Below, one piece after another: positions 34,833 through 48,402 of a DNA stretch of 64,000 bases. Made by a program: the position numbers and the translations under genes. Origin of the DNA: Aquipluma nitroreducens (GTDB taxonomy: Bacteria > Bacteroidota > Bacteroidia > Bacteroidales > Prolixibacteraceae); assembly GCF_009689585.1 (NCBI RefSeq), contig NZ_AP018694.1, positions 4,269,501 through 4,333,500 of the forward strand, written 5' to 3'. Numbering within the stretch: position 1 is the first letter of the stretch; each line of letters opens with the position of its first letter. The notes beneath the pieces were generated by a model. The model had not been told where the DNA came from and did not search any database. It saw only the letters and a list, made by a program, of their open reading frames with translations.

Positions 34833-34869
34833 AAAAAAAGCCGCTCCCTATTTCAGGAAAGCGGCTTTT
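34833..34869 (-). terminator. rho-independent terminator of gnd
   Basis: On the minus strand AAAAGCCGCTTTCCTGAAAT pairs back through AGGGAGCGGCTTTTTTT and ends in T's. Between it and the gnd stop lies GTGCCTGAGCTTGTCGAAGGC, a short palindromic motif often seen as a dispersed repeat. Confidence 0.88.
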
Positions 34870-34906: not shown

Positions 34907-36361
34907 CTAAACCACGTAAGTTCTTGAAGTAGTGTCGCCACCTCTTCCGGTCCAGTTGGTGTGGAAGAATTCGCCGCGAGGTTTGTCGGTGCGTTCGTAA
35001 GTGTGAGCGCCGAAATAGTCGCGCTGAGCCTGTAACAGGTTGGCTGGTAAACGTTCGCTGCGGATTCCGTCGAAATAGCAAAGCGCTGAAGTCAATGCCG
35101 GAACAGGAATTCCGTTAGTCAGAGCCGTTGCGCAAACACGACGCCATCCGGCTTGTGCTTTTTCAACAATTTCTTTGAAGTGAGGAGCAAACAGCAGGTT
35201 TTGCAGGTCAGGATTAACATCGAATGCCTTTTTGATGTCGCCTAAAAATACCGAACGGATGATGCAACCACCACGCCACATCAGGGCAATACCGCCGTAA
35301 TTCAGGTTCCAGCCGTATTCTTTGGCAGCTTCCATCATCAGGTTATAACCCTGAGCATACGAAATAATCTTAGCTCCGAATAAAGCATCTTTCAGGTCTG
35401 AAATCATCTGGACTTTGTCAATGGTTTTGTCTACTACCGGGCCGCTGATTACTTTCGAAGCCTCAACGCGCATGTCTTTTTGAGCCGACAGGCAACGGGC
35501 AAATACCGATTCTCCAATCAATGTCAATGGAATTCCGAGATCAAGGGCAGAAACTGCAGTCCATTTCCCAGTGCCTTTTTGTCCGGCGGTGTCGAGGATT
35601 TTTTCAACCAACGCTTCGCCATTTTCGTCGCGATATCCCAGAATGTCTCGTGTAATTTCAATCAGATACGAATCCAGATCGCCTTCATTGTATTTCTTGA
35701 AAACATCGTGCATTTCGTCGGCGCTCAAGCCCAGCATTTCTTTCATCAGCTGGTAAGCTTCGCAGATAATTTGCATATCGCCATACTCGATACCGTTGTG
35801 AACCATTTTTACGAAATGACCGGCACCGCCTTCGCCAACCCAGTCGCAACAAGGTGAACCGTCTTCCACTTTAGCCGAGACAGCCTGGAAAATCTCTTTC
35901 ACAGCAGGCCATGCGGCAGGTGATCCGCCTGGCATCATTGAAGGTCCTAACAAAGCGCCTTCTTCACCGCCTGAAACGCCGGTTCCTATGAACAGCAAGC
36001 CTTTGCTTTCAACATATTTGGTGCGGCGAATGGTGTCAGGGAAATGCGAGTTTCCACCATCGATAATGATGTCGCCCGGTTCCAGATGAGGAATAATCAG
36101 TTCGATGAAATCATCCACCGGTTGACCAGCTTTTACCAGCATCATCACTTTGCGAGGACGTTCGAGCGAAGCGCACAATTCGGCAATCGAATGAGCCCCG
36201 ATGAAATTTTTGCCTGCACCGCGACCAGCCATAAACTCGTCAACACGAGCAGTTGTACGGTTAAAAACACCAACGGTAAAGCCTTTGCTTTCCATGTTCA
36301 ATACCAGGTTCTCGCCCATTACGGCCAACCCGATCAATCCAATGTCTGCTAATTTTTTCAT
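34907..36361 (-). CDS. gnd: 6-phosphogluconate dehydrogenase (decarboxylating)
   Basis: A 484-residue cytoplasmic enzyme converting 6-phosphogluconate to ribulose 5-phosphate and CO2 with NADP+. The N-terminal Rossmann motif is IGLIGLAVMGENLVLNM. The substrate motif IDGGNSHFPDT lies near residue 103, and GTGVSGGEEGALLGPSMMPGG near 130. Length matches the long form. No zwf or pgl lies beside it; instead it is the last gene of the minus-strand sugar-acid gene run. Confidence 0.97.
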   Translation of the reverse strand: MKKLADIGLIGLAVMGENLVLNMESKGFTVGVFNRTTARVDEFMAGRGAGKNFIGAHSIAELCASLERPRKVMMLVKAGQPVDDFIELIIPHLEPGDIIIDGGNSHFPDTIRRTKYVESKGLLFIGTGVSGGEEGALLGPSMMPGGSPAAWPAVKEIFQAVSAKVEDGSPCCDWVGEGGAGHFVKMVHNGIEYGDMQIICEAYQLMKEMLGLSADEMHDVFKKYNEGDLDSYLIEITRDILGYRDENGEALVEKILDTAGQKGTGKWTAVSALDLGIPLTLIGESVFARCLSAQKDMRVEASKVISGPVVDKTIDKVQMISDLKDALFGAKIISYAQGYNLMMEAAKEYGWNLNYGGIALMWRGGCIIRSVFLGDIKKAFDVNPDLQNLLFAPHFKEIVEKAQAGWRRVCATALTNGIPVPALTSALCYFDGIRSERLPANLLQAQRDYFGAHTYERTDKPRGEFFHTNWTGRGGDTTSRTYVV

Positions 36362-36391
36362 TTTGTATAGTTAATAATTCATATTTTAGTT

Positions 36392-36425
36392 TGAACCAAA
36401 TAGTCACATAGGGCACATAGATTGT
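36392..36425. repeat. partial CACATAG-type repeat
   Basis: GAACCAAATAGTCACATAGGGCACATAG resembles one arm of the inverted repeat at 38700-38767. The rest of the gap to pdxB contains AATGACAATCAATGACT-like short repeats and no gene. Confidence 0.5.
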
Positions 36426-36516
36426 CATTTGTCGTCATTAAATTGTAATTCATGTTCATTTGTAGTCAATCAATTGTTTTTTCAACTAATAACGCGAAGC
36501 TAATGACAATCAATGA

Positions 36517-37644
36517 CTAGCTTTTAATTTGAAATCCTAGTTTTCGTAAAACCTCCAAAGTTTCGTCCTCTACGTTCTTCCGAACGATCGTAAACGCCGG
36601 AAATTCCCTTCTCGTTGGGTAATCTCCTCGTAATTGCTCGAATTGCGCCGTGTTTTTCCTGAAATCCTGATCGTCGTTCCGGATGTCATAGGTGTGCAGA
36701 ATGGCTTTAGCAATAATTTCCTGTTCGCTAAGTCCCGATCCGTCCAATTCAAAAACCGGATTAACGGGTTGCTCCACTCCTGAAGGTTGCCAGTCGTCCA
36801 ATTCAAGTCCGAAGAATTGACTGATGGCATGCACACTCATTCGAGTTCCGGTAGCTTTGCCATCTTTCGAATAACCTGCAATATGAGGCGTTGCGATCTC
36901 AGTCATCGAAAGTAATTCCAGATCAATGTCAGGTTCGTTTTCCCAACAGTCGCAAACAAATCCTGAAATCTGATCGCTTTTCAGTGCCGCTTTTACAGCC
37001 TGGGTTTCCACCACTTCGCCACGACAGGAGTTGATCAAGACAGGTTTGCATTTCAGGCCAGAAAAGAACTCTTCATTTCCTAAATGGAACGTGGCATCTT
37101 CGCCTTTCATGTTCAGCGGAACATGCAGGGTAATGATGTTGGCTTCGTCCATCACCTGTTTTAGGCTGACAAAAGCGGCAGAACCTTCAGCGCGTTCGCG
37201 TGGAGGGTCGTTCAGCAGAACTTTCATGCCCAGCAGATTACAAACTTTTGCAACTTTGCTGCCCACATTTCCAACCCCAACCACTCCGATACAAATATCT
37301 TTCAGGTTCAATTTTCTGGTTTCGGCCAAAACCATGAGCGTTGAGGCAATGTATTGTTCCACCGATTTGCTGTTGCAGCCAGGTGCATTGGTCCATTTGA
37401 TTCCGGCATTATCGCAATAATCGGTGTCAATGTGGTCGTACCCAATGGTTGCTGTCGCGATGAATTTCACAGAAGAACCGGCCAACAACCTTTCGTTGCA
37501 AATGGTACGGGTACGGGTTACAATAGCATCGGCATCCTTCGCTATTTCCGGAGTAGTTTTTGAACCCGGAAGGTAAATGACCTCGGCAACTCCTTCGAAG
37601 GCACTGCGGATATATGGTATTTTATCGTCAATAATAATTTTCAT
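36517..37644 (-). CDS. pdxB: 4-phosphoerythronate dehydrogenase
   Basis: A 375-residue cytoplasmic NAD-dependent enzyme of vitamin B6 synthesis. The 2-hydroxyacid dehydrogenase fold shows ATATIGYDHIDTD, the NAD motif GVVGVGNVGSKVAKV (about 120), NSCRGEVV and TPHIAGYSKDGKATGTRM (about 253) with the catalytic His. The extra C-terminal PdxB dimerisation domain (about 290-375) supports this call over other hydroxyacid dehydrogenases. I start at MKIIIDDKIPY. It begins 5 bases after the preceding gene's stop. Confidence 0.93.
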   Translation of the reverse strand: MKIIIDDKIPYIRSAFEGVAEVIYLPGSKTTPEIAKDADAIVTRTRTICNERLLAGSSVKFIATATIGYDHIDTDYCDNAGIKWTNAPGCNSKSVEQYIASTLMVLAETRKLNLKDICIGVVGVGNVGSKVAKVCNLLGMKVLLNDPPRERAEGSAAFVSLKQVMDEANIITLHVPLNMKGEDATFHLGNEEFFSGLKCKPVLINSCRGEVVETQAVKAALKSDQISGFVCDCWENEPDIDLELLSMTEIATPHIAGYSKDGKATGTRMSVHAISQFFGLELDDWQPSGVEQPVNPVFELDGSGLSEQEIIAKAILHTYDIRNDDQDFRKNTAQFEQLRGDYPTRREFPAFTIVRKNVEDETLEVLRKLGFQIKS

Positions 37645-37649
37645 TCGTC

Positions 37650-38687
37650 TTAAATATTTCGGCAACTGCCTTTTGTTCGTTTGTTATCGTCGTATCCGGA
37701 ATAATAGTGTTTCACCATTTCTTCCAACACAGCGCTGGTTCTGGCGGCTGATTTACCGGTACTCACGCACTCGCTTTCTCCCCGTAATGTTTTTACAACC
37801 TGATCAATTAGATTGTGCTGTATATTTTCAGGATTTTGAGAGCTGAAACTGACTGTTCCTTCCGGAGTTGTCAGTATTACATCGCCATGCTGAAAACTGG
37901 AGAAACTGAGTTTGCCCTTTGTACCGTTAATTTCAATGATATCTTCTTCGTTTCCTTTGGCAACCACAAAACACCAGCTTCCGGTGCCAATCACACCGTT
38001 TCCAAACCGGAAAGTTCCGGTAACAGTATCTTCAGCAGGGTAATGTCCGGCCTGATTTGCCGCTAACCCATAAACTTGAATGACCGGACCAAATACAAAA
38101 TCAAGAAAATCTAACTGATGCGAAGCTAAGTCATAAAAATAACCGGCGCCAGCAATCTCCGGATTCACATGCCAGAATTGAGTTTCAGGTTTTAAATCAC
38201 GTTCGGGAACCGATTTGTGCAGGCGAACATTTACAGTCATTGGTCTCCCGATGATTCCGTCATCAATCAACTCTTTCACTTTTAGGAAAGCAGGAAGAGT
38301 CCGTCGATAATAAGCCACAAATAAGGGTAATCTAGTTTCTTCTGAAACACGAATCATTTCCTGACATTCCTGATAATTACGGGCCATGGGTTTTTCTACG
38401 TAAACCGACTTCCCGGCACGCATTGCAGCAATAGCATAAGAAGCATGCGTGTCAGGTGGGGTGGCAATGTAAACAGCATTCACCTCCGGATCGTTTATAA
38501 GCTGATCGGCGTCTGAATACCATTTGGACACACCATGCCGTTTGGCATAGTCTTCGGCTAATGCTTCATTACGGCGCATCACAGCAACCAATCGGGAATG
38601 CTCCACCTTGCTAAATGCCGGACCACTCTTCAGTTCAGTCACGTTCCCGCAGCCAATAATTCCCCAATGTATTTCGGTTAGCGCCAT
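37650..38687 (-). CDS. Gfo/Idh/MocA family oxidoreductase
   Basis: A 345-residue cytoplasmic NAD(P)-dependent sugar dehydrogenase-like protein. The N-terminal Rossmann domain has WGIIGCGNVTELKSGPA and AVYIATPPDTHASYA. EKPMARNYQECQEM is the family lysine motif near residue 97. The C-terminal domain follows DLASHQLDFLDFVFGP. Substrate is not recognisable; the sugar-acid context suggests a polyol or sugar acid, but housekeeping is equally possible. I start at MALTEIHWG. Confidence 0.87.
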   Translation of the reverse strand: MALTEIHWGIIGCGNVTELKSGPAFSKVEHSRLVAVMRRNEALAEDYAKRHGVSKWYSDADQLINDPEVNAVYIATPPDTHASYAIAAMRAGKSVYVEKPMARNYQECQEMIRVSEETRLPLFVAYYRRTLPAFLKVKELIDDGIIGRPMTVNVRLHKSVPERDLKPETQFWHVNPEIAGAGYFYDLASHQLDFLDFVFGPVIQVYGLAANQAGHYPAEDTVTGTFRFGNGVIGTGSWCFVVAKGNEEDIIEINGTKGKLSFSSFQHGDVILTTPEGTVSFSSQNPENIQHNLIDQVVKTLRGESECVSTGKSAARTSAVLEEMVKHYYSGYDDNKRTKGSCRNI

Positions 38688-38699
38688 ACATTTATTTTT

Positions 38700-38767
38700 A
38701 ACCACATAGACACATAGGGCACAATAGTTTTTTGACTTTCTATGTGTTCTATGTGTCTATTGTGGTT
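38700..38767. repeat. inverted repeat with CACATAG motifs
   Basis: AACCACATAGACACATAGGG at 38700 is mirrored by CTATGTGTCTATTGTGGTT ending at 38767, giving arms of about 28 bases around a T-rich loop. A related arm occurs near 36392. It fills the gap between larA-like and gfo/idh genes. Confidence 0.7.
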
Positions 38768-38773
38768 CATATT

Positions 38774-40063
38774 TTAGTATTTGAATCTGTCTTTAAATGC
38801 CCATAAACCCAATGCAGGATTTGAAATGTAGAAGATTTCTTCTCCATCAGCCATTGTGTTATATCCATCGCGCAATTTGGCTGGATCATATTTGGTAGTC
38901 ACTTCGTCGATATCAGAATATTTGAAACCAACACTTTCTATTTCAGCCTGAGTCAGATTTTCTTTCCCTTTTCCCGGGCAGTATGTAATGCTGAACCGTC
39001 CTTCCGAAGAACCATGAATCAGGTGAGCCGCGGCACTCAGGTTGTTGCGAAGCTCTTCATTTTCGTCGCAGGCTTTCAAGGTCGCCGGAGTCCCGAAATA
39101 ACCGTATTTGCGTATCAACCGGTCGATTTCCTTGTCTTCGCCGAACTCTTTTAATGCAGGAGCTAAAACGATCAGATCGCCGTCATCGTCAATGGCCATG
39201 CGGGTGCGGTAAACCGATTTGTTACCCAGCCATGTGCTTTTAAACTCGGTAGGATCGAGGTAAACCACCACTTTTTTCAGCGGTTTGTCCAACATTTCGA
39301 AGTTGACGAGCAGGGCTAGTTTGGCTGCTTTGTCGAAAACTTCAAAGTCATCGCCAATATACAATCCGCGGGTTTTGATCTTACCGTCAGTTTTATCCAG
39401 TCCAACTACGGTTTGTACATAAACAATCGGCATGTGGTTGGTGAAATTATCCGAAGCATAGTTGAAGATGCGGCGAACCGGAGTGTCGGCATGTCCCATC
39501 ATTCGCTCCATTCCGTAAGCTGCGCCTACAAAATGACTTTTGTTGATACCTTCCACACCGCCTGTTCCGACAAAAATATTTTTGTTGTAATTGGCCATTC
39601 CAACCACTTCGTGAGGAACCACTTGTCCGATAGAAAGAATCAGATCGAAGTTGCCTTCAAGCAAAAGTTTATTGACTTGTGCAGGCCACGGAAATTCAAC
39701 AGCTCCGCCCGAAACTTCTTTGACGAATTCTGCAGGAACAGTGCCAACGGTAACCACGTCATTCCGCCAGTCGTGTTCGCGAATCAATGAAGCTGGCATG
39801 GAACCGAACATATGCGAAATCTGGTGGTCGGTCATTGGCGAATGTGTTCCCAATGCAGGAAGAACATCAGTTAATGCATCGCCATAAAACTGCCAGGTCA
39901 TTTCGGTCAGCTCACCGGCACGACTGGGCAAACGGGTATAATCCGGCGGAATAGCCAGTACTTTCGTTTTTTTGCCAATTTTCTCCAATGCTTCAAACAG
40001 CCCTTTTTTCAGGTCGTCGGCACTTAATTCGTGGTTTACTGAACCTATTTCGTAATGTAACAT
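38774..40063 (-). CDS. LarA-like nickel-pincer nucleotide racemase/epimerase
   Basis: A 429-residue cytoplasmic protein of the lactate racemase (LarA) superfamily. Motifs are PPDYTRLPSRAGE (D41, R44), GTHSPMTDHQ (H74), VVPHEVVG (H151), NYNKNIFVG (K161) and INKSHF (H177). The spacing of H151, K161 and H177 (10 and 16 residues) equals that of H174, K184 and H200 in Lactobacillus LarA, which bind nickel and the pincer cofactor. The family interconverts 2-hydroxyacid epimers; some members epimerise aldonates such as gluconate. Sitting among hexuronate genes, an aldonate 2-epimerase is my inference. Cofactor genes larB, larC and larE are not in the window. I start at MLHYEIG; the upstream frame is repeat sequence. 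Confidence 0.82.
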   Translation of the reverse strand: MLHYEIGSVNHELSADDLKKGLFEALEKIGKKTKVLAIPPDYTRLPSRAGELTEMTWQFYGDALTDVLPALGTHSPMTDHQISHMFGSMPASLIREHDWRNDVVTVGTVPAEFVKEVSGGAVEFPWPAQVNKLLLEGNFDLILSIGQVVPHEVVGMANYNKNIFVGTGGVEGINKSHFVGAAYGMERMMGHADTPVRRIFNYASDNFTNHMPIVYVQTVVGLDKTDGKIKTRGLYIGDDFEVFDKAAKLALLVNFEMLDKPLKKVVVYLDPTEFKSTWLGNKSVYRTRMAIDDDGDLIVLAPALKEFGEDKEIDRLIRKYGYFGTPATLKACDENEELRNNLSAAAHLIHGSSEGRFSITYCPGKGKENLTQAEIESVGFKYSDIDEVTTKYDPAKLRDGYNTMADGEEIFYISNPALGLWAFKDRFKY

Positions 40064-40065
40064 AT

Positions 40066-40105
40066 CAGCCCCTCCTAACCTCCCCAAAGGGGAGGGATTT
40101 TGTCC
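40066..40105. repeat. GC-rich palindromic repeat before the larA-like gene
   Basis: On the minus strand CCCTCCCCTTTGGGGAGG is followed by TTAGGAGGGGCTGAT and then the ATG. The G-block ends 5 bases before the start codon. Confidence 0.75.
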
Positions 40106-40138
40106 GTTATTAATGAGTTTTCATAATTTAATGCTCCT

Positions 40139-40172
40139 TCAAGTCCCCCTTAGGGGGATTCAGGGGGATTCA
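40139..40172. repeat. GC-rich palindromic repeat after the pfkB gene
   Basis: AAGTCCCCCTTAGGGGGATT is followed by CAGGGGGATTC. It ends 1-2 bases from the stop codon of the kinase gene. Confidence 0.7.
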
Positions 40173-40173
40173 T

Positions 40174-41253
40174 TTATCTTTTCACGCGAGCATTTCCGCC
40201 CCAGATGCTCCAAACCATTTCTTCATCAGCAGGTTGTGCATAGTCGGTGAGGAAAGTCGTTGCCAGGGCGCCGGTTGCCCAACCAAATTGCGGCCATTTT
40301 TCAGGTGTCCAACCTTTCAGGATACCATAAAGCAAACCACCCACAAAACCGTCGCCGCCGCCAATACGGTCGAGAACAGTGATCTTACGTGGTTCGATGA
40401 CTTGCCAGTCGTTGCCTTCGAGCATAATGGCGCCCCAAAGATGTTCGTTGGCGCTCATTACCTGACGCAAAGTAGTTGCAAATACCGATGCATTCGGGAA
40501 AGCTTCTTTTACGCGGTTAATCATGCCTTTGAATCCGTCGATTTCGGCTTCAATACCTTTACCGCCAGCTTCCGGACCCTGAATGCCCAAACAAAGTTGA
40601 AAATCTTCTTCGTTTCCAATCAGGATGTCAGCCACTGAAGCAATTTCAGTAAAGCTTTCGCGCAATTCTTTGTCGCGTCCTTTCCAGAACGAAGCGCGGT
40701 AATTCAGGTCGAATGAAATGCGCGTTCCATATTTTTTTGCTGCACGGGCAATTTCCAGACAGAAAGTTGTTGTTTCGTGAGATAAGGCGCCAATCAATCC
40801 TGAAAGGTGAACAATCTGCACGCCTTCCTGACCGAAAATGCGTTCCAGATCAAAATCTTTCACGTTCAATGTGCGGCCAACCTCACCGGCACGGTCGTTT
40901 TGTACGCGAGGGCCGCGGGTTCCGAAACCACTATCGGCAATGTTGAACTGGTGACGATAACCCCAAGGGTCGGCTTGTACCACTTCAGGACCTTCGTAAT
41001 CCATGTTCCGGCTGCGGAGGCTGCTTTTTATGAATTGAGCTATCGGGCTGTCCTTTACAAAAGTGGTAAGCACTTTTACCGGAAGACCGAGTGAAGAAGA
41101 GATATTTGCAACATTGGTTTCGGCGCTGGTGGCCTGCATTTCGAAGAGGTTGCTACAGTGTACCGGCTGTCCGTTTACCGGTGTAATGCGAACACCCATG
41201 CTGGTTGCCACCAACAGGGAATATTTACAGTTTTGTTTTAATTCGATGCTCAT
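40174..41253 (-). CDS. PfkB-family sugar (acid) kinase
   Basis: A 359-residue cytoplasmic kinase. The N-terminal part has NVANISSSLGLPV, the middle FDLNYRASFWKG and LIGNEEDFQLCLG. The C-terminal ribokinase signature is DRIGGGDGFVGGLLYGI with the catalytic Asp. The overall pattern resembles 2-dehydro-3-deoxygluconate kinases, but a separate kdgK-like gene is present on the + strand, so this one may act on a different sugar acid. It lies between uxuB and the larA-like gene. I start at MSIELKQNCK. Confidence 0.85.
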   Translation of the reverse strand: MSIELKQNCKYSLLVATSMGVRITPVNGQPVHCSNLFEMQATSAETNVANISSSLGLPVKVLTTFVKDSPIAQFIKSSLRSRNMDYEGPEVVQADPWGYRHQFNIADSGFGTRGPRVQNDRAGEVGRTLNVKDFDLERIFGQEGVQIVHLSGLIGALSHETTTFCLEIARAAKKYGTRISFDLNYRASFWKGRDKELRESFTEIASVADILIGNEEDFQLCLGIQGPEAGGKGIEAEIDGFKGMINRVKEAFPNASVFATTLRQVMSANEHLWGAIMLEGNDWQVIEPRKITVLDRIGGGDGFVGGLLYGILKGWTPEKWPQFGWATGALATTFLTDYAQPADEEMVWSIWGGNARVKR

Positions 41254-41353
41254 ATTCGAGATATTAGATATTAGACAATAGATTTTAGACACAAGTATCA
41301 AGCTTCAGGTATCAGGAAAACCCACAACCCGAGTCTCGCAACTCGCATCCCGT
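41254..41353. repeat. mosaic of short repeat units between pfkB and uxuB
   Basis: The gap joins three repeat-like pieces: GATATTAGATATTAGACAAT, CAAGTATCAAGCTTCAGGTATC and CCGAGTCTCGCAACTCGC. Each is internally repetitive or palindromic. No gene is seen. Confidence 0.5.
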
Positions 41354-42205
41354 TTAAACTCCTCCAAATGCGCTGTATCCGCCGTCGACCGGGATTACGA
41401 TTCCGGTAACAAAAGAGGAAATGTCGGAAAGAAGGAATAACGTAGTTCCTTGTAAATCTTCCGGCTCACCAAATTTGCCCATTGGCGTGTTGTTTACAAT
41501 TTTCTGGCCGCGTGGAGAAAAACCGCCGGTTTCCTTGTCCAAAACTAAAAAGCGATTCTGATCAGTAATGAAAAAGCCCGGGGCAATTGCATTGACGCGA
41601 ACACCAACTTTTGCCAAATGAACGGAAAGCCATTCAGTAAAATTGTTGATTGACGCTTTTGCAGCCGAATAAGCAGGAATTTTAGTCAACGGTTTGTACG
41701 AGTTCATCGACGAAACGTTCAGAACTACACCTTTTTTATTCTTCAGCATATCGGTTGTAAATACCATCGATGGTAGCAAAGTTCCTTTGAAATTCAAGGC
41801 AAATACTTTATCAAAACCGTCCATCGATAAACCATAGAACGTATCTTCCAGGTGATCGAGGCTGTTTTCGTCCATTTGTTCCACCTTTGTGGTTGCGGTT
41901 GGGTGGTTTCCACCGGCTCCATTAATCAGCATATCAATGTCTCCAAACTTTTCGTTGATTACTGCTTTGGCTTTTATTAACGAATCTTTGTCCAACACAT
42001 TGGCTTCAACGCCAATAACTTCAGCATTATATTCTTTCGAAATTTCGGCTGCAACTCTTTCAGCAACTTCTTTATTGATGTCGGCAATCGCAATTTTTAC
42101 GCCCACAGAGGCCATTGCTTTAACCATTGCTGCACCGATAACGCCAGCACCACCTGTAATTACACATACTTTACCACTAAGGTCGTTAAAACTGATTGGA
42201 TTCAT
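41354..42205 (-). CDS. uxuB: SDR-family oxidoreductase, probable D-mannonate oxidoreductase (fructuronate reductase)
   Basis: A 283-residue cytoplasmic short-chain dehydrogenase. GKVCVITGGAGVIGAAMVKA binds NAD(P), NGAGGNHP replaces NNAG, and the catalytic Ser, Tyr and Lys are in VSSMNS and YSAAKAS. The C-terminal PVDGGYSAFGGV is typical of the SDR group that replaces the classical UxuB in Bacillus and Bacteroidota hexuronate loci. It would reduce D-fructuronate to D-mannonate. It follows the lacI-type gene by 15 bases. Confidence 0.8.
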   Translation of the reverse strand: MNPISFNDLSGKVCVITGGAGVIGAAMVKAMASVGVKIAIADINKEVAERVAAEISKEYNAEVIGVEANVLDKDSLIKAKAVINEKFGDIDMLINGAGGNHPTATTKVEQMDENSLDHLEDTFYGLSMDGFDKVFALNFKGTLLPSMVFTTDMLKNKKGVVLNVSSMNSYKPLTKIPAYSAAKASINNFTEWLSVHLAKVGVRVNAIAPGFFITDQNRFLVLDKETGGFSPRGQKIVNNTPMGKFGEPEDLQGTTLFLLSDISSFVTGIVIPVDGGYSAFGGV

Positions 42206-42220
42206 ATACTTATCGTTTAG

Positions 42221-43285
42221 TTATTTATAATAGTCCACATTTTCTTTGGTAATAATATCGATGGAAGTATAGTTTTCGCTTTTAACCTCTTTCTTCAAAA
42301 TCAGATGTTCAAAAAGAGTGATAATCGCGTTGTAACCTTGTTCTTCCGGTCGCTGGCAGATCAGAAAATCAACAATTCCTTTCTTCAGGAAGCTGATGTT
42401 TTCGTTAATTAAATCGTGACCGATCACCCGAATATTGGTCAGGTTAAGTTCTTCAAGAATGTTGGCCAGGTAATAAACCTGCGAGTTAGTTACAAAAATT
42501 CCCAAAATTTCAGGATTCGTTTGTAACAGAGTTTTAATCACATTTTGTGATTCTTCGCTAGTCGGATCAGCAATTTCCCGGGTAATCAGCTTCCTTTTGG
42601 ATTCAGGCCTGTTTTTGCTGAAATATTCATAAAATCCCTTTTCGCGTTGCACTAAATGGTTCATATTATCCAATTGTTTTGCGAAATGCAAAATCAGGAT
42701 TGAAGCTTCAGCCGGAACAGAATAATCGAGCAATTTGGCTGCTAAAGTGCCAGACTGAAACGAATTCTGACCAATAAAACTTAGTTTGCAACATTCATTG
42801 AGGTTCGAATCTATAAATACATACGGAATGTTCCGTTTCATCAATTCTTCAATGAACTCTTTCGATTCCCGAAGAAAGAATGGCGCAAGCACAACTCCTT
42901 CCGGATTATTTTCAAGGATTAACTTAGTTTCGGTATTAAAAGTTTTTGGATCAGATTGTTTGAAGAGGTGTGTGGAAATATTTACACCATATTGATGAAT
43001 TTCCTCAAAGGCTTTCCTTACACCGATCAAGGGTTTATTCCAGTACGATTCCGAGGAGATGGGTTCAGGCATGAGCAGGGCAAAGGAAAACGTTTTCTTT
43101 GAGGCCAGCGTACTTGCCAGTAGATTGGGTTGATACTCCATCTCATCAATAATCGTAAGGATTTTATCGCGGGTGGCTTTCGAAACTTCTCCGCGGTTGT
43201 GAATTACACGGTCAACTGTTCCGATTGAAACGTTTGCTTTCTGTGCAATATCCTTAATTCGGGTGCGATTAATTGCTTTGATAAT
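42221..43285 (-). CDS. LacI-family transcriptional regulator, non-canonical start
   Basis: The protein joins an N-terminal LacI helix-turn-helix (RIKDIAQKANVSIGTVDRVI then HNRGEVS) to a periplasmic-binding-like ligand domain (about residues 65-350). The DNA-binding part is in frame upstream of the first ATG at 43141, so the gene must start earlier. Going upstream the frame contains only ATT and ATC codons before a TGA at 43289-43291, so I place the start at the ATT at 43285; ATC at 43288 is the alternative. It heads the minus-strand gene run and probably binds the two palindromes in the divergent promoter region, sensing a hexuronate intermediate. Confidence 0.8.
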   Translation of the reverse strand: MIKAINRTRIKDIAQKANVSIGTVDRVIHNRGEVSKATRDKILTIIDEMEYQPNLLASTLASKKTFSFALLMPEPISSESYWNKPLIGVRKAFEEIHQYGVNISTHLFKQSDPKTFNTETKLILENNPEGVVLAPFFLRESKEFIEELMKRNIPYVFIDSNLNECCKLSFIGQNSFQSGTLAAKLLDYSVPAEASILILHFAKQLDNMNHLVQREKGFYEYFSKNRPESKRKLITREIADPTSEESQNVIKTLLQTNPEILGIFVTNSQVYYLANILEELNLTNIRVIGHDLINENISFLKKGIVDFLICQRPEEQGYNAIITLFEHLILKKEVKSENYTSIDIITKENVDYYK

Positions 43286-43320
43286 GATTCAGTTTTAAGG
43301 TTCAATTTGTTGAGCAGGAA

Positions 43321-43328
43321 CAAAGCTA
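43321..43328 (-). promoter_or_regulatory. -7 promoter box of the lacI-type gene
   Basis: The complement reads TAGCTTTG, an exact TAnnTTTG. No good -33 TTG is seen; operator 1 lies about 20 bases upstream where it would be expected. The box is 36 bases before the proposed ATT start. Confidence 0.45.
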
Positions 43329-43347
43329 TATAAATTTTCTTTGATGT

Positions 43348-43361
43348 CGTGTACGAACACG
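43348..43361. promoter_or_regulatory. LacI-type operator 1
   Basis: CGTGTACGAACACG is palindromic except at its centre and is the reverse complement of operator 2 at 43437-43450. It covers the -33 region of the lacI-type gene. Confidence 0.65.
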
Positions 43362-43407
43362 GAAAAACTATTTTAAAACATTTTTTGCTATTTTTAGTTT
43401 GTCACGG

Positions 43408-43438
43408 TTGCAGATTAGAGATATTGTCCATACTTTCG
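43408..43438 (+). promoter_or_regulatory. promoter of the hexuronate operon
   Basis: TTG at 43408-43410, a 20-base spacer and TACTTTCG at 43431-43438 fit the Bacteroidota promoter with one mismatch. Operator 2 begins at the last two bases of the -7 box, so a bound repressor would block it. Confidence 0.6.
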
Positions 43439-43450
43439 TGTTCGTACACG
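43437..43450. promoter_or_regulatory. LacI-type operator 2
   Basis: CGTGTTCGTACACG lies over the expected transcription start of the uxaE operon. Its centre is 89 bases from that of operator 1. Confidence 0.65.
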
Positions 43451-43493
43451 GAATCTTCGTTGTTTTATTTATGTCTCAGTAAATTAATATCAT

Positions 43494-44741
43494 ATGAAAC
43501 TAGGAAAATATAGTTTAGGAATTGGCGACCGCTTCTCTCACCAGGGAGTTGCTCAGCTTCGCGGAATTGTAAAAGCCAATCAGGCAGGTTTGGACATTAG
43601 TCCGGTTTGGAACAAGTCGAACCGCGAGCACATGTATGTGCATTCGCATCCGGCTGATGTTCGGAAAGAAGCTGACGCGGCAGTTGCTGCTTTGGGTTTC
43701 TCCGGAAAATATTTTGTAGATGCAGACCATATTAATATGGGAACGGTTTCTCCGTTTGTTGAAACTGCTGACTTTTTTACCCTCGACGTGGCATCGTTTA
43801 TTGGGAAAGAAAGTCCGGAAGCCGATGTGAAAGCATTTGTTGCTTCGTGTTCGAAATATGTTGGGAAACTGAATATTCCAGGAATTGACCATGCGATTGA
43901 AGTTTCAAAAGAATTGATTGAAAAAATAGCACACAAATTTTTAGCTGCAACCCAACAGGCCAGCGAAATCTATAATTTTTTAGAATCGTCAAAAGGGAAA
44001 GGCAATTTCATTACTGAAGTTTCGATGGACGAAGTTGAAAGCCCACAAACACCGGTTGATTTGTTCTTTATCCTGAAAATGTTGGCCGATAAAGGTGTTC
44101 CGGCACAAACCATTGCCCCTAAATTTACAGGCCGTTTCAATAAGGGAGTTGATTACACCGGAAACGTTGAGCAATTTGCCAAAGAATTTGAAGAAGACGT
44201 TCTGGTAATTGATTATGCGGTGAAAGAATTCGGACTTCCTGAAGAATTAAAACTGAGCGTACACTCCGGAAGCGATAAATTCACGATTTATCCGATCATG
44301 GCCAGCATCATTAAAAAATACGATAAAGGCATTCATGTGAAAACCGCCGGAACAACCTGGCTCGAAGAAGTAATCGGACTTGCAGTCGCTGGTGGCGAAG
44401 CTCTGGAAGCCGCCAAATCGATATACTCCATAGCGCTGGGCCGCAAAGACGAATTGTGCGCTCCTTATGCCGATGTCATTGATATTGATGATTCGAAATT
44501 ACCTTCGGCTGCGGAAGTTGCTGGCTGGTCGAGCGAAAAATTTGCCAATACTTTGCGTCATATTCCGGGTCATCCTGATTACAATCCAAATCTTCGTCAG
44601 TTGATTCATGTAGGCTACAAAGTTGCTTCTGAAATGGGAACAACTTATACCGATCTTCTGAAAAAACATGCTGAAGTGGTTGGCCAGTGCGTTGAAGAAA
44701 ATATTTACGAAAGACATTTAAAGAGACTTTTCAATTTATAG
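43494..44741 (+). CDS. uxaE: tagaturonate/fructuronate epimerase family protein
   Basis: A 415-residue cytoplasmic protein matching the tagaturonate epimerase family over its length (GDRFSHQGVAQLRGIVKANQ; YFVDADHINMGTVSPF; KFTGRFNKGVDYTGN; KLSVHSGSDKFTIYP). Conserved Asp/His/Lys residues in these blocks probably bind a metal and substrate. The enzyme interconverts D-tagaturonate and D-fructuronate so that galacturonate enters the glucuronate branch. It is the first gene after the operator-controlled promoter. Confidence 0.85.
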   Translation: MKLGKYSLGIGDRFSHQGVAQLRGIVKANQAGLDISPVWNKSNREHMYVHSHPADVRKEADAAVAALGFSGKYFVDADHINMGTVSPFVETADFFTLDVASFIGKESPEADVKAFVASCSKYVGKLNIPGIDHAIEVSKELIEKIAHKFLAATQQASEIYNFLESSKGKGNFITEVSMDEVESPQTPVDLFFILKMLADKGVPAQTIAPKFTGRFNKGVDYTGNVEQFAKEFEEDVLVIDYAVKEFGLPEELKLSVHSGSDKFTIYPIMASIIKKYDKGIHVKTAGTTWLEEVIGLAVAGGEALEAAKSIYSIALGRKDELCAPYADVIDIDDSKLPSAAEVAGWSSEKFANTLRHIPGHPDYNPNLRQLIHVGYKVASEMGTTYTDLLKKHAEVVGQCVEENIYERHLKRLFNL

Positions 44742-46490: not shown

Positions 46491-47522
46491 ATGAAAGTAG
46501 TTACATTCGGAGAAATCATGTTGCGACTTGCAACTCCTGGTTATTTGCGTTTTAATCAAACTGATAGTTTAACAGCCACTTTTGGTGGTGGTGAGGCCAA
46601 TGTGGCCGTTTCGCTTGCCAATTTTGGTATTCCGGTCGATTTTGTGACCAGGTTGCCCAAAAATGATATTGCACAGAGTTGTGTAATGGATCTGCGGAAA
46701 TACGGAGTCGGAGTAGATCAGATCGTTTATGGTGGCGATCGTTTGGGTATCTATTTTCTGGAAACAGGCGCTGTAAGCCGCGGTAGTAAAGTGGTTTACG
46801 ACCGTGCACATTCCGCAGTTTCTGAAATAAAATCAGGAATGATTGACTGGAACAAGGTTTTTGAAGGAGTAAACTGGTTTCACTGGACTGGAATTACCCC
46901 GGCAATTTCTCAGGGCGCTGCCGATGTTTGTCTGGAAGCCATTCAGAAAGCCAACGAAAAGGGAATTACCGTTTCATGCGATTTGAATTACCGCAAGAAT
47001 TTATGGAACTACGGCAAAAAAGCTGGCGAAGTGATGCCTGCGCTGGTTGCCGGAACCGATGTGATTTTGGGCAATGAAGAAGATGCCGAAAAAGTATTGG
47101 GTATTAAACCTGAAGGCGTTGATGTAACTGGTGGTCATGTTGAGGCTGTAGCTTATGAATCTGTTTCAAAACAGATTATGGCGAAATTTCCGCGTTGTAA
47201 AAAAGTAATTACTACTTTGCGTGGATCAATTAATGCCAACCATAACAGTTGGTCGGGTGTGCTTTGGGACGGAAAAACTTTGTTTGAAGCTCCGACTTAT
47301 CAGATTACAGATATTGTTGACCGTGTTGGTGGTGGCGATTCATTTATGGGTGGTTTGATTTACGGGTTGCTGACTTATACCGGTGATGATCAGAAAGCCC
47401 TGAACTTTGCAGTTGCAGCATCGTGTCTGAAACATACCATTTACGGCGACTACAACCAGGTAACTGTTGATGAAGTTGAAAAACTCATGGGTGGCGATGC
47501 TTCGGGTCGGGTAGCAAGATAG
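46491..47522 (+). CDS. kdgK: 2-dehydro-3-deoxygluconokinase
   Basis: A 343-residue cytoplasmic PfkB-family kinase phosphorylating 2-dehydro-3-deoxy-D-gluconate to KDPG. The N-terminus KVVTFGEIMLRLATPGYLRF and the block FGGGEANVAVSLANFG are standard for KdgK. FDLNYRK-like CDLNYRKNLWNYG lies near residue 165, and DRVGGGDSFMGGLIYGL with the catalytic Asp near 280. The downstream gene encodes KDPG aldolase, supporting the substrate. Confidence 0.92.
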   Translation: MKVVTFGEIMLRLATPGYLRFNQTDSLTATFGGGEANVAVSLANFGIPVDFVTRLPKNDIAQSCVMDLRKYGVGVDQIVYGGDRLGIYFLETGAVSRGSKVVYDRAHSAVSEIKSGMIDWNKVFEGVNWFHWTGITPAISQGAADVCLEAIQKANEKGITVSCDLNYRKNLWNYGKKAGEVMPALVAGTDVILGNEEDAEKVLGIKPEGVDVTGGHVEAVAYESVSKQIMAKFPRCKKVITTLRGSINANHNSWSGVLWDGKTLFEAPTYQITDIVDRVGGGDSFMGGLIYGLLTYTGDDQKALNFAVAASCLKHTIYGDYNQVTVDEVEKLMGGDASGRVAR

Positions 47523-47689: not shown

Positions 47690-47728
47690 ACCAGTTCTCC
47701 CCCTTCGGGGGAGTTAGAGGGGGCTTTA
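47690..47728. repeat. GC-rich palindromic repeat before kdgA
   Basis: TTCTCCCCCTTCGGGGGAGT is followed by TAGAGGGGGCTTTA. GGGGGC ends 6 bases before the ATG at 47731, so the repeat forms the whole translation-initiation region. Confidence 0.75.
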
Positions 47729-47730
47729 TT

Positions 47731-48402
47731 ATGGCAAGGTTTACAAGAATTGAAGTAACAATAAAAATGCAGGAAACCGGCATGGTTCCGGTATTTTACC
47801 ATAGAGATGCCAATGTTTGCAAGCAGGTTGTCAAAGCTTGTTACGAAGGTGGCGTTCGTGTTTTCGAATTCACTAACCGAGGAGATTTTGCTCACGAGGT
47901 ATTTGCTGAAGTATCGAAATGGGCAGCGAAAGAAACTCCTGAAATGATTCTGGGAGTTGGTTCGGTAATCGATAGTGCAACAGCTGCATTGTATATTCAG
48001 TTGGGCTCTAATTTCATTGTTTCTCCACTGATCGACGAAGATACAGCTCGATTCTGCAATCGTCGTAAAATTGCATGGAGCCCAGGTTGCGGTTCGGTTA
48101 CAGAGATTAACCGTGCACACGAATTGGGTGCCGAAGTGGTAAAAGTATTCCCGGGTTCATCGGTTGGTGGTCCTGATTTTATTTCAGGAGTGAAAGGCCC
48201 GATGCCTTGGGCCAGTATTATGCCAACCGGAGGCGTTTCTCCGGATGAAGCTAACCTGAAAGGCTGGTTCAAAGCCGGAGTTCATTGCGTTGGTATGGGA
48301 TCACAATTGTTCCCGAAAGAAGTGATCGAAGCCGGAGACTACAGCGTTATTGCCGAAAAATGCAGTCAGGCATTAGAGATCATTAAAAAGCTCAGATCAT
48401 AA
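47731..48402 (+). CDS. kdgA: KDPG / 4-hydroxy-2-oxoglutarate aldolase
   Basis: A 223-residue cytoplasmic class I aldolase cleaving 2-dehydro-3-deoxy-6-phosphogluconate to pyruvate and glyceraldehyde 3-phosphate. GGVRVFEFTNRGDFA holds the catalytic Glu, and GAEVVKVFPGSSVGG holds the Schiff-base Lys. Phosphate binding is in MPTGGVSPDE. I start at MARFTRIEVTIK (47731), since the longer frame upstream translates repeat DNA. It completes the kdgK-kdgA branch. Confidence 0.93.
   Translation: MARFTRIEVTIKMQETGMVPVFYHRDANVCKQVVKACYEGGVRVFEFTNRGDFAHEVFAEVSKWAAKETPEMILGVGSVIDSATAALYIQLGSNFIVSPLIDEDTARFCNRRKIAWSPGCGSVTEINRAHELGAEVVKVFPGSSVGGPDFISGVKGPMPWASIMPTGGVSPDEANLKGWFKAGVHCVGMGSQLFPKEVIEAGDYSVIAEKCSQALEIIKKLRS

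What the first reader, a model, noticed from the sequence alone, without database searches (positions are those of the whole stretch)
34907..44741. Possible alternative hexuronate route through gluconate to the pentose phosphate pathway
Next to the usual UxaC/UxaE/KdgK/KdgA genes the regulator shares a strand with a fructuronate-reductase-type SDR (making mannonate), a PfkB kinase, a LarA-type hydroxyacid epimerase and 6-phosphogluconate dehydrogenase. Mannonate dehydratase (UxuA) is absent from the window. Mannonate and gluconate are C2 epimers, and gluconate 2-epimerase activity is known in the LarA superfamily. A route mannonate -> gluconate -> 6-phosphogluconate -> ribulose 5-phosphate would be consistent with the gene set. 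The epimerase and kinase substrates are inferred.
Basis: inference. Interest (0 to 1): 0.7.

Follow-up and report, generated by a model that had tools for sequence, protein, structure and literature searches.

The report
Nickel-epimerase route for pectin sugar acids
A bacterium of the Bacteroidota appears to send pectin-type sugar acids into the pentose phosphate pathway through a lactate-racemase-like enzyme instead of the usual dehydratase, and many of its relatives keep that enzyme although they lack known genes for making its nickel cofactor.

Summary
The gene set is real: lacI - SDR mannonate oxidoreductase - PfkB kinase - LarA homologue - Gfo/Idh - pdxB - gnd on the minus strand, divergent from uxaE-uxaC-kdgK-kdgA. 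No UxuA was found in the single-contig genome.

Mannonate -> gluconate -> 6-phosphogluconate -> ribulose-5-P is the best reading but not new: it was proposed for Thermotoga maritima, whose GntE others later assayed. New here: an untested LarA group (18), a PfkB-type kinase instead of FGGY GntK, cluster conservation in one family and, more loosely, in other phyla, and a LacI operator upstream of lacI in 33 of 34 family loci. This genome has nikR-larE-larC-larB and no second LarA.

Against: Gfo-PdxB-Gnd is a unit in four LarA-less relatives, so gnd is not dedicated to this route; substrates and step order are unproven.

Unexpected: 71 of 126 LarA-18 genomes show no LarC and no LarB over cut-off, six of them single-contig, yet all 56 ortholog rows checked keep the cofactor and catalytic residues, and LarA is under strong purifying selection. 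PdxB beside gnd may clear 4-phosphoerythronate, a Gnd inhibitor.

The parts
42221..43288 (-). LacI-family regulator; HTH part read in frame up to about 43288, without ATG/GTG/TTG start in that stretch (ORF listed as 42221-43141)
   Evidence: 33 of 34 family homologues with operator upstream
41354..42205 (-). SDR D-mannonate oxidoreductase (fructuronate reductase type)
   Evidence: NF006132 over cut-off
40174..41250 (-). PfkB-family kinase, own clade, 27-30% identical to KdgK proteins of these loci; proposed gluconate (or mannonate) kinase
38774..40063 (-). LarA superfamily group 18, putative D-mannonate/D-gluconate 2-epimerase with the NPN-binding and catalytic residues
   Evidence: NF052594 over cut-off; 4nar match; residues
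37650..38687 (-). Gfo/Idh/MocA oxidoreductase, function unknown
36517..37647 (-). PdxB, 4-phosphoerythronate dehydrogenase
   Evidence: NF001309 over cut-off
34907..36361 (-). Gnd, 6-phosphogluconate dehydrogenase, the only copy found in the genome
   Evidence: TIGR00873 over cut-off; single PF00393 match
34836..34869 (-). terminator-like hairpin after gnd
43347..43362 (.). LacI-type operator palindrome, lacI-proximal copy
   Evidence: family conservation
43436..43451 (.). LacI-type operator palindrome, uxaE-proximal copy, 89 bp from the first
   Evidence: family conservation
43494..44741 (+). UxaE tagaturonate epimerase
   Evidence: PF16257
44860..46260 (+). UxaC uronate isomerase
   Evidence: NF002794 over cut-off
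46491..47522 (+). KdgK-type PfkB kinase (no NCBIfam KdgK model over cut-off; named by similarity and context)
47728..48402 (+). KDPG/KHG aldolase (KdgA)
   Evidence: PF01081
48440..49885 (+). MFS transporter, probable hexuronate carrier
   Evidence: PF07690; best NCBIfam model D-galactonate transporter 175 of 395 bits; substrate inferred

Best explanation
A LacI-controlled hexuronate regulon with two divergent arms. UxaC and UxaE turn galacturonate or glucuronate into fructuronate; the SDR reduces it to D-mannonate; the nickel-pincer enzyme LarA-18 inverts C2 to give D-gluconate; the PfkB kinase makes 6-phosphogluconate; Gnd makes ribulose-5-phosphate, CO2 and (expected) NADPH. UxuA was not found in this genome, so this would be the main outlet of mannonate. 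PdxB next to Gnd would remove 4-phosphoerythronate, a known Gnd inhibitor (and may feed vitamin B6). Shown: the genes, their conservation, the shared operator sequence, the conserved active site, the NPN genes. Inferred: substrates of LarA and kinase, step order, flux direction, regulator binding and effector, the PdxB role.
For: LarA is group 18 by NCBIfam, grouped with GntE groups 19/20 by signature (PMC7583248); the only PDB sequence match and best fold match is T. maritima GntE2, 4nar. The ten-residue string D,R,H,H,E,V,K,H,W,K is complete in 56 of 56 ortholog rows (55 genomes, G507 twice) and in 79 of 80 genome-contig loci, the 80th lacking its start. Family loci: Gnd 37, PfkB 36, SDR 35 of 37 (L059 is cut by a contig end). 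In 42 of 80 genome-contig loci with 4.5 kb on both sides, Gnd lies within 5.5 kb on the same strand in 36: 30 of 30 labelled Bacteroidota, 6 of 12 others. The kinase is replaced by other types (PFK in L086, L153, L157; other PfkB in Ignavibacteria and Verrucomicrobiota), as if the step were needed. UxuA sits inside the same operon in some relatives, and in G509 a separate SDR-UxuA pair carries the operator, tying the cluster to mannonate. Operator: 46 matches in 40 family loci against 0-3 in 20 shuffles. UxuA absent; no MR_MLE protein over the ManD cut-off; LarA-18 the only PF09861 match in the genome, with NikR-LarE-LarC-LarB over their cut-offs.
Against: No assay of a group-18 LarA was found in the papers I read. 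Gfo-PdxB-Gnd is a unit without LarA in L207-L210, so its adjacency within the family is weaker proof of a joint route than it looks; a promoter-like site lies in the pdxB-gnd gap, though such sites are no more frequent than in shuffles. Six loci of other phyla have LarA-18 with no gnd in the stretch held (L160, L169, L174, L175, L182, L184). Seven Bacteroidota loci have no PfkB-clade kinase next to LarA (L148, L159, L165, L166, L178, L179, L180). A HAD-type protein sits in the kinase position in L181. KdgK/KdgA are kept without UxuA. Three MR_MLE proteins look like sugar-acid dehydratases of unassigned substrate (L090, L091, L092). More than half of LarA-18 genomes show no LarC.
Confidence: 0.68

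Rival explanations
1. Kinase first: the PfkB enzyme phosphorylates mannonate and LarA-18 (or another enzyme) epimerises 6-phosphomannonate to 6-phosphogluconate, as seen in extracts of Lactobacillus suebicus.
For: L. suebicus extracts made 6-phosphomannonate and some 6-phosphogluconate, and no gluconate from mannonate (PMC6978723, passages read). Gene order SDR-PfkB-LarA-Gnd fits this order equally.
Against: Tested GntE enzymes act on free mannonate (PMC7583248); LarA-18 shares their loop E and alpha11 W. The L. suebicus epimerase gene is not identified in that paper.
Confidence: 0.2
2. LarA-18 links gluconate and mannonate so that one of them can enter a KDG branch through UxuA or an enolase-superfamily dehydratase, with gnd a neighbour for another reason.
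For: UxuA lies in the same operon in several relatives (L067-L073, L110, L111, L120, L130, L158, L164, L166, L181). Gfo-PdxB-Gnd is a unit of its own in LarA-less relatives. KdgK and KdgA are co-located here, and three unassigned sugar-acid dehydratases exist in the genome.
Against: This genome has no UxuA and no ManD over cut-off; two of the three dehydratases (L091, L092) lie beside RraA-like and SDR genes, not hexuronate genes. In other families and phyla Gnd adjoins LarA without Gfo or PdxB (L136, L143, L146, L148, L153, L156, L168).
Confidence: 0.06
3. LarA-18 epimerises another hexonate or works outside hexuronate use; the cluster only shares regulation.
For: No group-18 enzyme assayed in the papers seen; a term search for group 18 in the JBC 2024 study gave nothing. 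Paralogs at 45-47% identity sit in loci without other genes of this cluster except distant SDRs in L060.
Against: Operon with a mannonate oxidoreductase in 35 of 37 family loci, operator in the promoter shared with uxaE.
Confidence: 0.06

Closest known systems
T. maritima UxaR regulon: aldH-pelB-gnd-uxaRED-gntEK plus kdgAK-uxuBA (Rodionova et al. 2012, known here only through passages of PMC3750489 and PMC6978723)
   Same: UxaE, fructuronate reductase, LarA-type GntE, kinase and Gnd together, co-regulated with galacturonate use
   Different: LacI regulator and palindromic operator instead of GntR-type UxaR; group 18 instead of group 20 LarA; PfkB kinase instead of gntK; UxuA missing; Gfo and PdxB added
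D-gluconate 2-epimerases GntE1/GntE2 (LarA groups 19 and 20, PMC7583248)
   Same: NPN-binding and catalytic residues, loop E and alpha11 W, fold (4nar best match)
   Different: 25% identity to 4nar; no group 18 activity reported in the papers seen
L. suebicus galacturonate fermentation (PMC6978723)
   Same: Isomerase route joined to 6-phosphogluconate and Gnd; UxuA, KdgK, KdgA not detected in the proteome
   Different: Kinase acts first there, genes of kinase and epimerase not identified, phosphoketolase pathway below
4-phosphoerythronate clearance by Pho13/PGP/CpgA (PMC6449344)
   Same: A 4-phosphoerythronate-consuming enzyme protects Gnd when gluconate is used
   Different: Here a dehydrogenase (PdxB), by position only; not tested

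Membership tests
LarA superfamily, group 18 (NCBIfam NF052594) | Profile score over curated cut-off | tested here: met
   658 bits, cut-off 500
LarA superfamily, group 18 (NCBIfam NF052594) | NPN-binding R, K, H and catalytic D, H, H, K; loop E-V; alpha11 W | tested here: met
   R44, K161, H177, D41, H74, H151, K282, E152, V153, W278 counted from the ATG at 40063 (the script's own count is two higher); alpha14 not checked
LarA superfamily, group 18 (NCBIfam NF052594) | NPN biosynthesis genes LarB, LarC, LarE in the genome | tested here: met
   met in this genome; no LarC in 71 of 126 LarA-18 genomes of the family; LarE not searched family-wide
D-gluconate 2-epimerase (GntE) | Interconverts D-mannonate and D-gluconate | not testable with these tools
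   needs an enzyme assay
T. maritima-type mannonate-gluconate route | FGGY-type gluconokinase GntK beside GntE (FGGY type recalled) | tested here: not met
   best of four FGGY proteins scores 139 of 649 bits for TIGR01314; PfkB kinase in its place. P-loop type GntK not searched
T. maritima-type mannonate-gluconate route | GntE, reductase and Gnd co-regulated with UxaE | tested here: inconclusive
   same operator sequence in the shared divergent promoter and upstream of 33 of 34 lacI loci, a single strand run ending in a hairpin; binding and co-transcription not measured
KDG kinase (KdgK) for the PfkB at 40174-41250 | KdgK profile over cut-off and KdgK-like pocket | tested here: inconclusive
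   NF052444 30 of 400 bits, NF041332 100 of 440; but the KdgK-type protein at 46491 also misses both (52 and 216), so the profiles do not discriminate. The GG hinge and GIYFLE stretch of the 7 KdgK rows are replaced in all 17 rows of the clade
PdxB | Equivalog profile over cut-off | tested here: met
   NF001309 461 of 434 bits

The most novel reading that the evidence does not exclude
In more than half of the LarA-18 genomes of this family the enzyme works in hexuronate use although no LarB and no LarC is encoded. Either these bacteria take up the nickel-pincer cofactor (or a precursor) made by neighbours, or they make it with unknown enzymes, or group 18 reaches the same chemistry without it. 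In the papers I read I saw no LarA enzyme whose cofactor supply is not explained by LarBCE; this would be one.
Probability: 0.35. Interest if true: 0.8.

Novelty: new variant of a known kind. Interest (0 to 1): 0.52.

Why it matters
If true, it extends the mannonate-gluconate bypass from a hyperthermophile to many Bacteroidota and to some members of other phyla, gives a function to an untested LarA group and to a PfkB clade, and offers a candidate PfkB-type gluconate kinase. The retention of a strongly conserved nickel-pincer enzyme in single-contig genomes without LarB and LarC makes the question of cofactor sharing or salvage directly testable. The PdxB-Gnd pairing suggests a bacterial guard of Gnd against 4-phosphoerythronate.

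Tried and rejected
UxuA/LarC complementarity: if LarA-18 needs NPN, LarC-less genomes should keep UxuA. Among 96 good-quality LarA-18 genomes: LarC+UxuA+ 16, LarC+UxuA- 26, LarC-UxuA+ 35, LarC-UxuA- 19; Fisher p = 0.013 without correction for relatedness; genus g201 alone gives p = 0.036, the window's own genus no trend. The 19 with neither speak against it. UxuA was counted as present only for strong hits (E below 1e-90; 68 of 140); the tool's own count at E 0.001 is 79 of 140; the 11 weak-only genomes were counted as absent.

UxuA elsewhere under the same operator: I read 20 UxuA loci not seen beside LarA. Within one mismatch, one (L187, G509) has the operator, upstream of SDR-UxuA; 19 do not; five of those have a site with two mismatches (L192, L199, L200, L201, L206). 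One, L188 (G517), is probably the LarA operon itself broken by a contig end. In 17 of the 20 the UxuA is a second type (44-49% to the query). So the operator regulon looks narrow.

ManD as a hidden mannonate dehydratase: seven MR_MLE hits in the genome. In one search I scanned a neighbouring ORF of L090 by mistake; one search scanned the right one and L096 (an enolase). None of the seven is over the ManD cut-off; best 194.5 of 550 bits (L092).

Dedicated gnd: rejected. Relaxed LarA in LarC-less genomes: rejected, median dN/dS 0.025 over the 21 of 55 pairs with dS below 2 (PfkB 0.025 over 29, Gnd 0.037 over 44), and 0.046 in LarC+ genomes over 6 of 10 pairs.

Full report
What is there. The window lies in a single-contig genome of 5.71 Mb. 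The minus-strand run from about 43288 to 34907 reads lacI, SDR, PfkB kinase, LarA homologue, Gfo/Idh, pdxB, gnd, and is followed by a terminator-like hairpin. The plus-strand arm reads uxaE, uxaC, kdgK, kdgA, MFS.

Who it is. 

Genome background. UxuA: none. Gnd: one PF00393 match, this one. zwf and a pgl-like gene are elsewhere, side by side (pgl by look). FGGY kinases: four; two reach a cut-off (a rhamnulokinase and a ribulokinase), the others are nearest to xylulokinase and rhamnulokinase, and the gluconokinase model is far below its cut-off. MR_MLE: seven hits, none over the ManD cut-off; three are nearest to galactonate dehydratase, also below its cut-off. NikR, LarE, LarC and LarB are in a row, each over its cut-off, followed by a membrane protein with a DsbD_2 match. 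LarA-18 is the only PF09861 match.

LarA group. NCBIfam places the protein in group 18. Desguin et al. 2020 (PMC7583248; passages and section 8 read) linked group 18 with 19 and 20 by signature, showed mannonate-gluconate epimerisation for 19 and 20, and only hypothesised a hexonate for 18. A 2024 study (PMC11770544, passages and one section) adds a eukaryotic GntE; a term search for 'group 18' and 'LarAH18' in it gave nothing. phmmer finds one PDB relative, 4nar, the T. maritima GntE2, also the best fold match of the model (mean pLDDT 89).

Distribution. In a draw of 395 genomes of the class, only this genome has it; that draw held no other member of its family among the genomes listed. In 140 genomes of its family, 126 do (125 over cut-off).

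Neighbourhoods. I fetched 40 family loci, 37 of them with the ortholog and 3 with paralogs; seven of the 37 were chosen because UxuA was near, so UxuA counts from them are biased. Gnd is present in 37, PfkB in 36, SDR in 35, PdxB in 35, Gfo in 34; UxaE was in the stretch in 14 and UxaC in 17. Some of these 80 are the same genomes as in the first set. In loci such as L141, L143 and L146 the order is PfkB-Gnd-LarA, in L148 and L155 LarA-Gnd-MFS, in a planctomycete (L153) PFK-SDR-HAD-LarA-Gnd. Four Verrucomicrobiota loci (L160, L169, L175, L182) have another PfkB and no gnd in the stretch.

Operator. A palindrome CGTGTNCGNACACG occurs twice in the divergent promoter (4 strand matches with up to 2 mismatches, 0.38 expected by chance). 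With up to 1 mismatch, 33 of 34 family loci with the lacI homologue have it within 600 bp upstream; of 12 with divergent uxaE close by, 9 have two copies, 88-90 bp apart; none of the others has two within that range. In the 34th (L086, G509) it lies between lacI and PFK-HAD-LarA-Gfo-PdxB-Gnd, and in the same genome another copy precedes a separate SDR-UxuA pair. Forty loci hold 46 matches; 20 shuffled sets hold 0-3. This supports one regulator for both arms; binding is not shown.

Kinase. The PfkB protein is 27-30% identical to the KdgK proteins of these loci; the best PDB matches are KDG kinases and a PfkB of unstated substrate at about 24%. It keeps the GGGD motif and a DLNYR or DLNHR stretch but changes the hinge and the sugar-lid stretch in all 17 clade rows. 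So it is unlikely to be a second KDG kinase; a sugar acid of similar size is likely. Residue roles in KdgK are recalled, not computed. The listing of one search showed no PfkB gluconate kinase that I recognised.

Negative control. Of six LarA-18-less family members, one (G435) had no gnd; I read the gnd region of the other five. Four (L207-L210) have Gfo-PdxB-Gnd as a unit without SDR, PfkB, LarA or operator; in the fifth (L211, G496) gnd stands behind a divergent gene, without PdxB or Gfo in the 7.5 kb held. So the trio is older or independent, and gnd serves the general pathway too. It also shows that PdxB and Gnd go together without LarA. 4-phosphoerythronate, the PdxB substrate, inhibits Gnd, and B. 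subtilis without its clearing enzyme is poisoned by gluconate (PMC6449344, passages). A guard role for PdxB is my reading; vitamin B6 synthesis is the plain alternative.

Cofactor anomaly. LarC is in 61 of 140 family genomes, LarB over cut-off in 59, all of them LarC genomes. Of 126 LarA-18 genomes, 55 have LarC and 71 do not; none of the 71 has LarB over cut-off, though one incomplete genome (G513) has a LarB-like fragment. Among 96 of good quality the split is 42 and 54. Six LarC-less carriers are single-contig genomes: G430, G434, G461, G462, G464, G507. The 56 ortholog rows examined (20 from LarC+ genomes, 36 rows from LarC-less ones, G507 twice) all have the complete residue set. dN/dS of LarA in eleven LarC-less genomes of one genus has a median of 0.025 over 21 of 55 pairs with dS below 2, like PfkB. 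The mBio 2024 paper (PMC11796402, passages) mentions genomes with larBCE but no larA; I saw no mention of the converse in the passages read or in the listings of searches, which is not proof that it is unreported; Desguin et al. 2014 is not held.

Verdict. The route is the best explanation (0.68) and is a new variant of a known route; the more surprising points are the cofactor supply and the PdxB-Gnd unit.

Noticed in passing
family genomes G430, G434, G461, G462, G464, G507 (no LarC) and others: LarA-18 kept intact and under purifying selection in genomes without LarC or LarB over cut-off.
   Followed up: partly
window 36517-37647 with 34907-36361; L207-L210: Gfo-PdxB-Gnd is a conserved unit also without LarA; possible 4-phosphoerythronate guard for Gnd.
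   Followed up: partly
L086:11173-12072, L153:8086-8988, L161:1-954, L181:7964-8917: A HAD_2-like protein (Pfam scores near the cut-off in the three scanned; starts with a DSDG motif) sits just upstream of LarA, in L181 in place of the kinase.
   Followed up: partly
L086:12205-13497, L153:5957-7219, L157:6001-7308: A phosphofructokinase homologue (NF010675 over cut-off in L086 and L153; L157 not scanned) in the LarA-Gnd cluster instead of PfkB.
   Followed up: partly
window 43141-43288: The HTH part of the LacI gene is in frame but has no ATG, GTG or TTG start; some relatives open with TTG, GTG or ATG. Perhaps an ATT/ATC start.
   Followed up: partly
L056:9480-10760, L058:9158-10444, L060:9267-10547: Second LarA-18-like proteins (45-47% identical) without SDR-PfkB-Gnd neighbours of this cluster.
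   Followed up: no
L102, L103 (G461, G430): A second, divergent gnd (44-45%) next to a divergent zwf (40-41%), without operator.
   Followed up: no
17 of the 20 loci L187-L206: A second UxuA type (44-49% to the query), in 15 of the 17 with an SDR of 38-45% identity, in other clusters of the family, without the operator at one mismatch.
   Followed up: partly
L047:7160-8557 and same place in L071, L072, L076, L078, L079: A 463-466 aa Gfo/Idh-like ORF in the operon between SDR and PfkB (before UxuA in L071 and L072); Pfam run on L047 and L078 only.
   Followed up: partly
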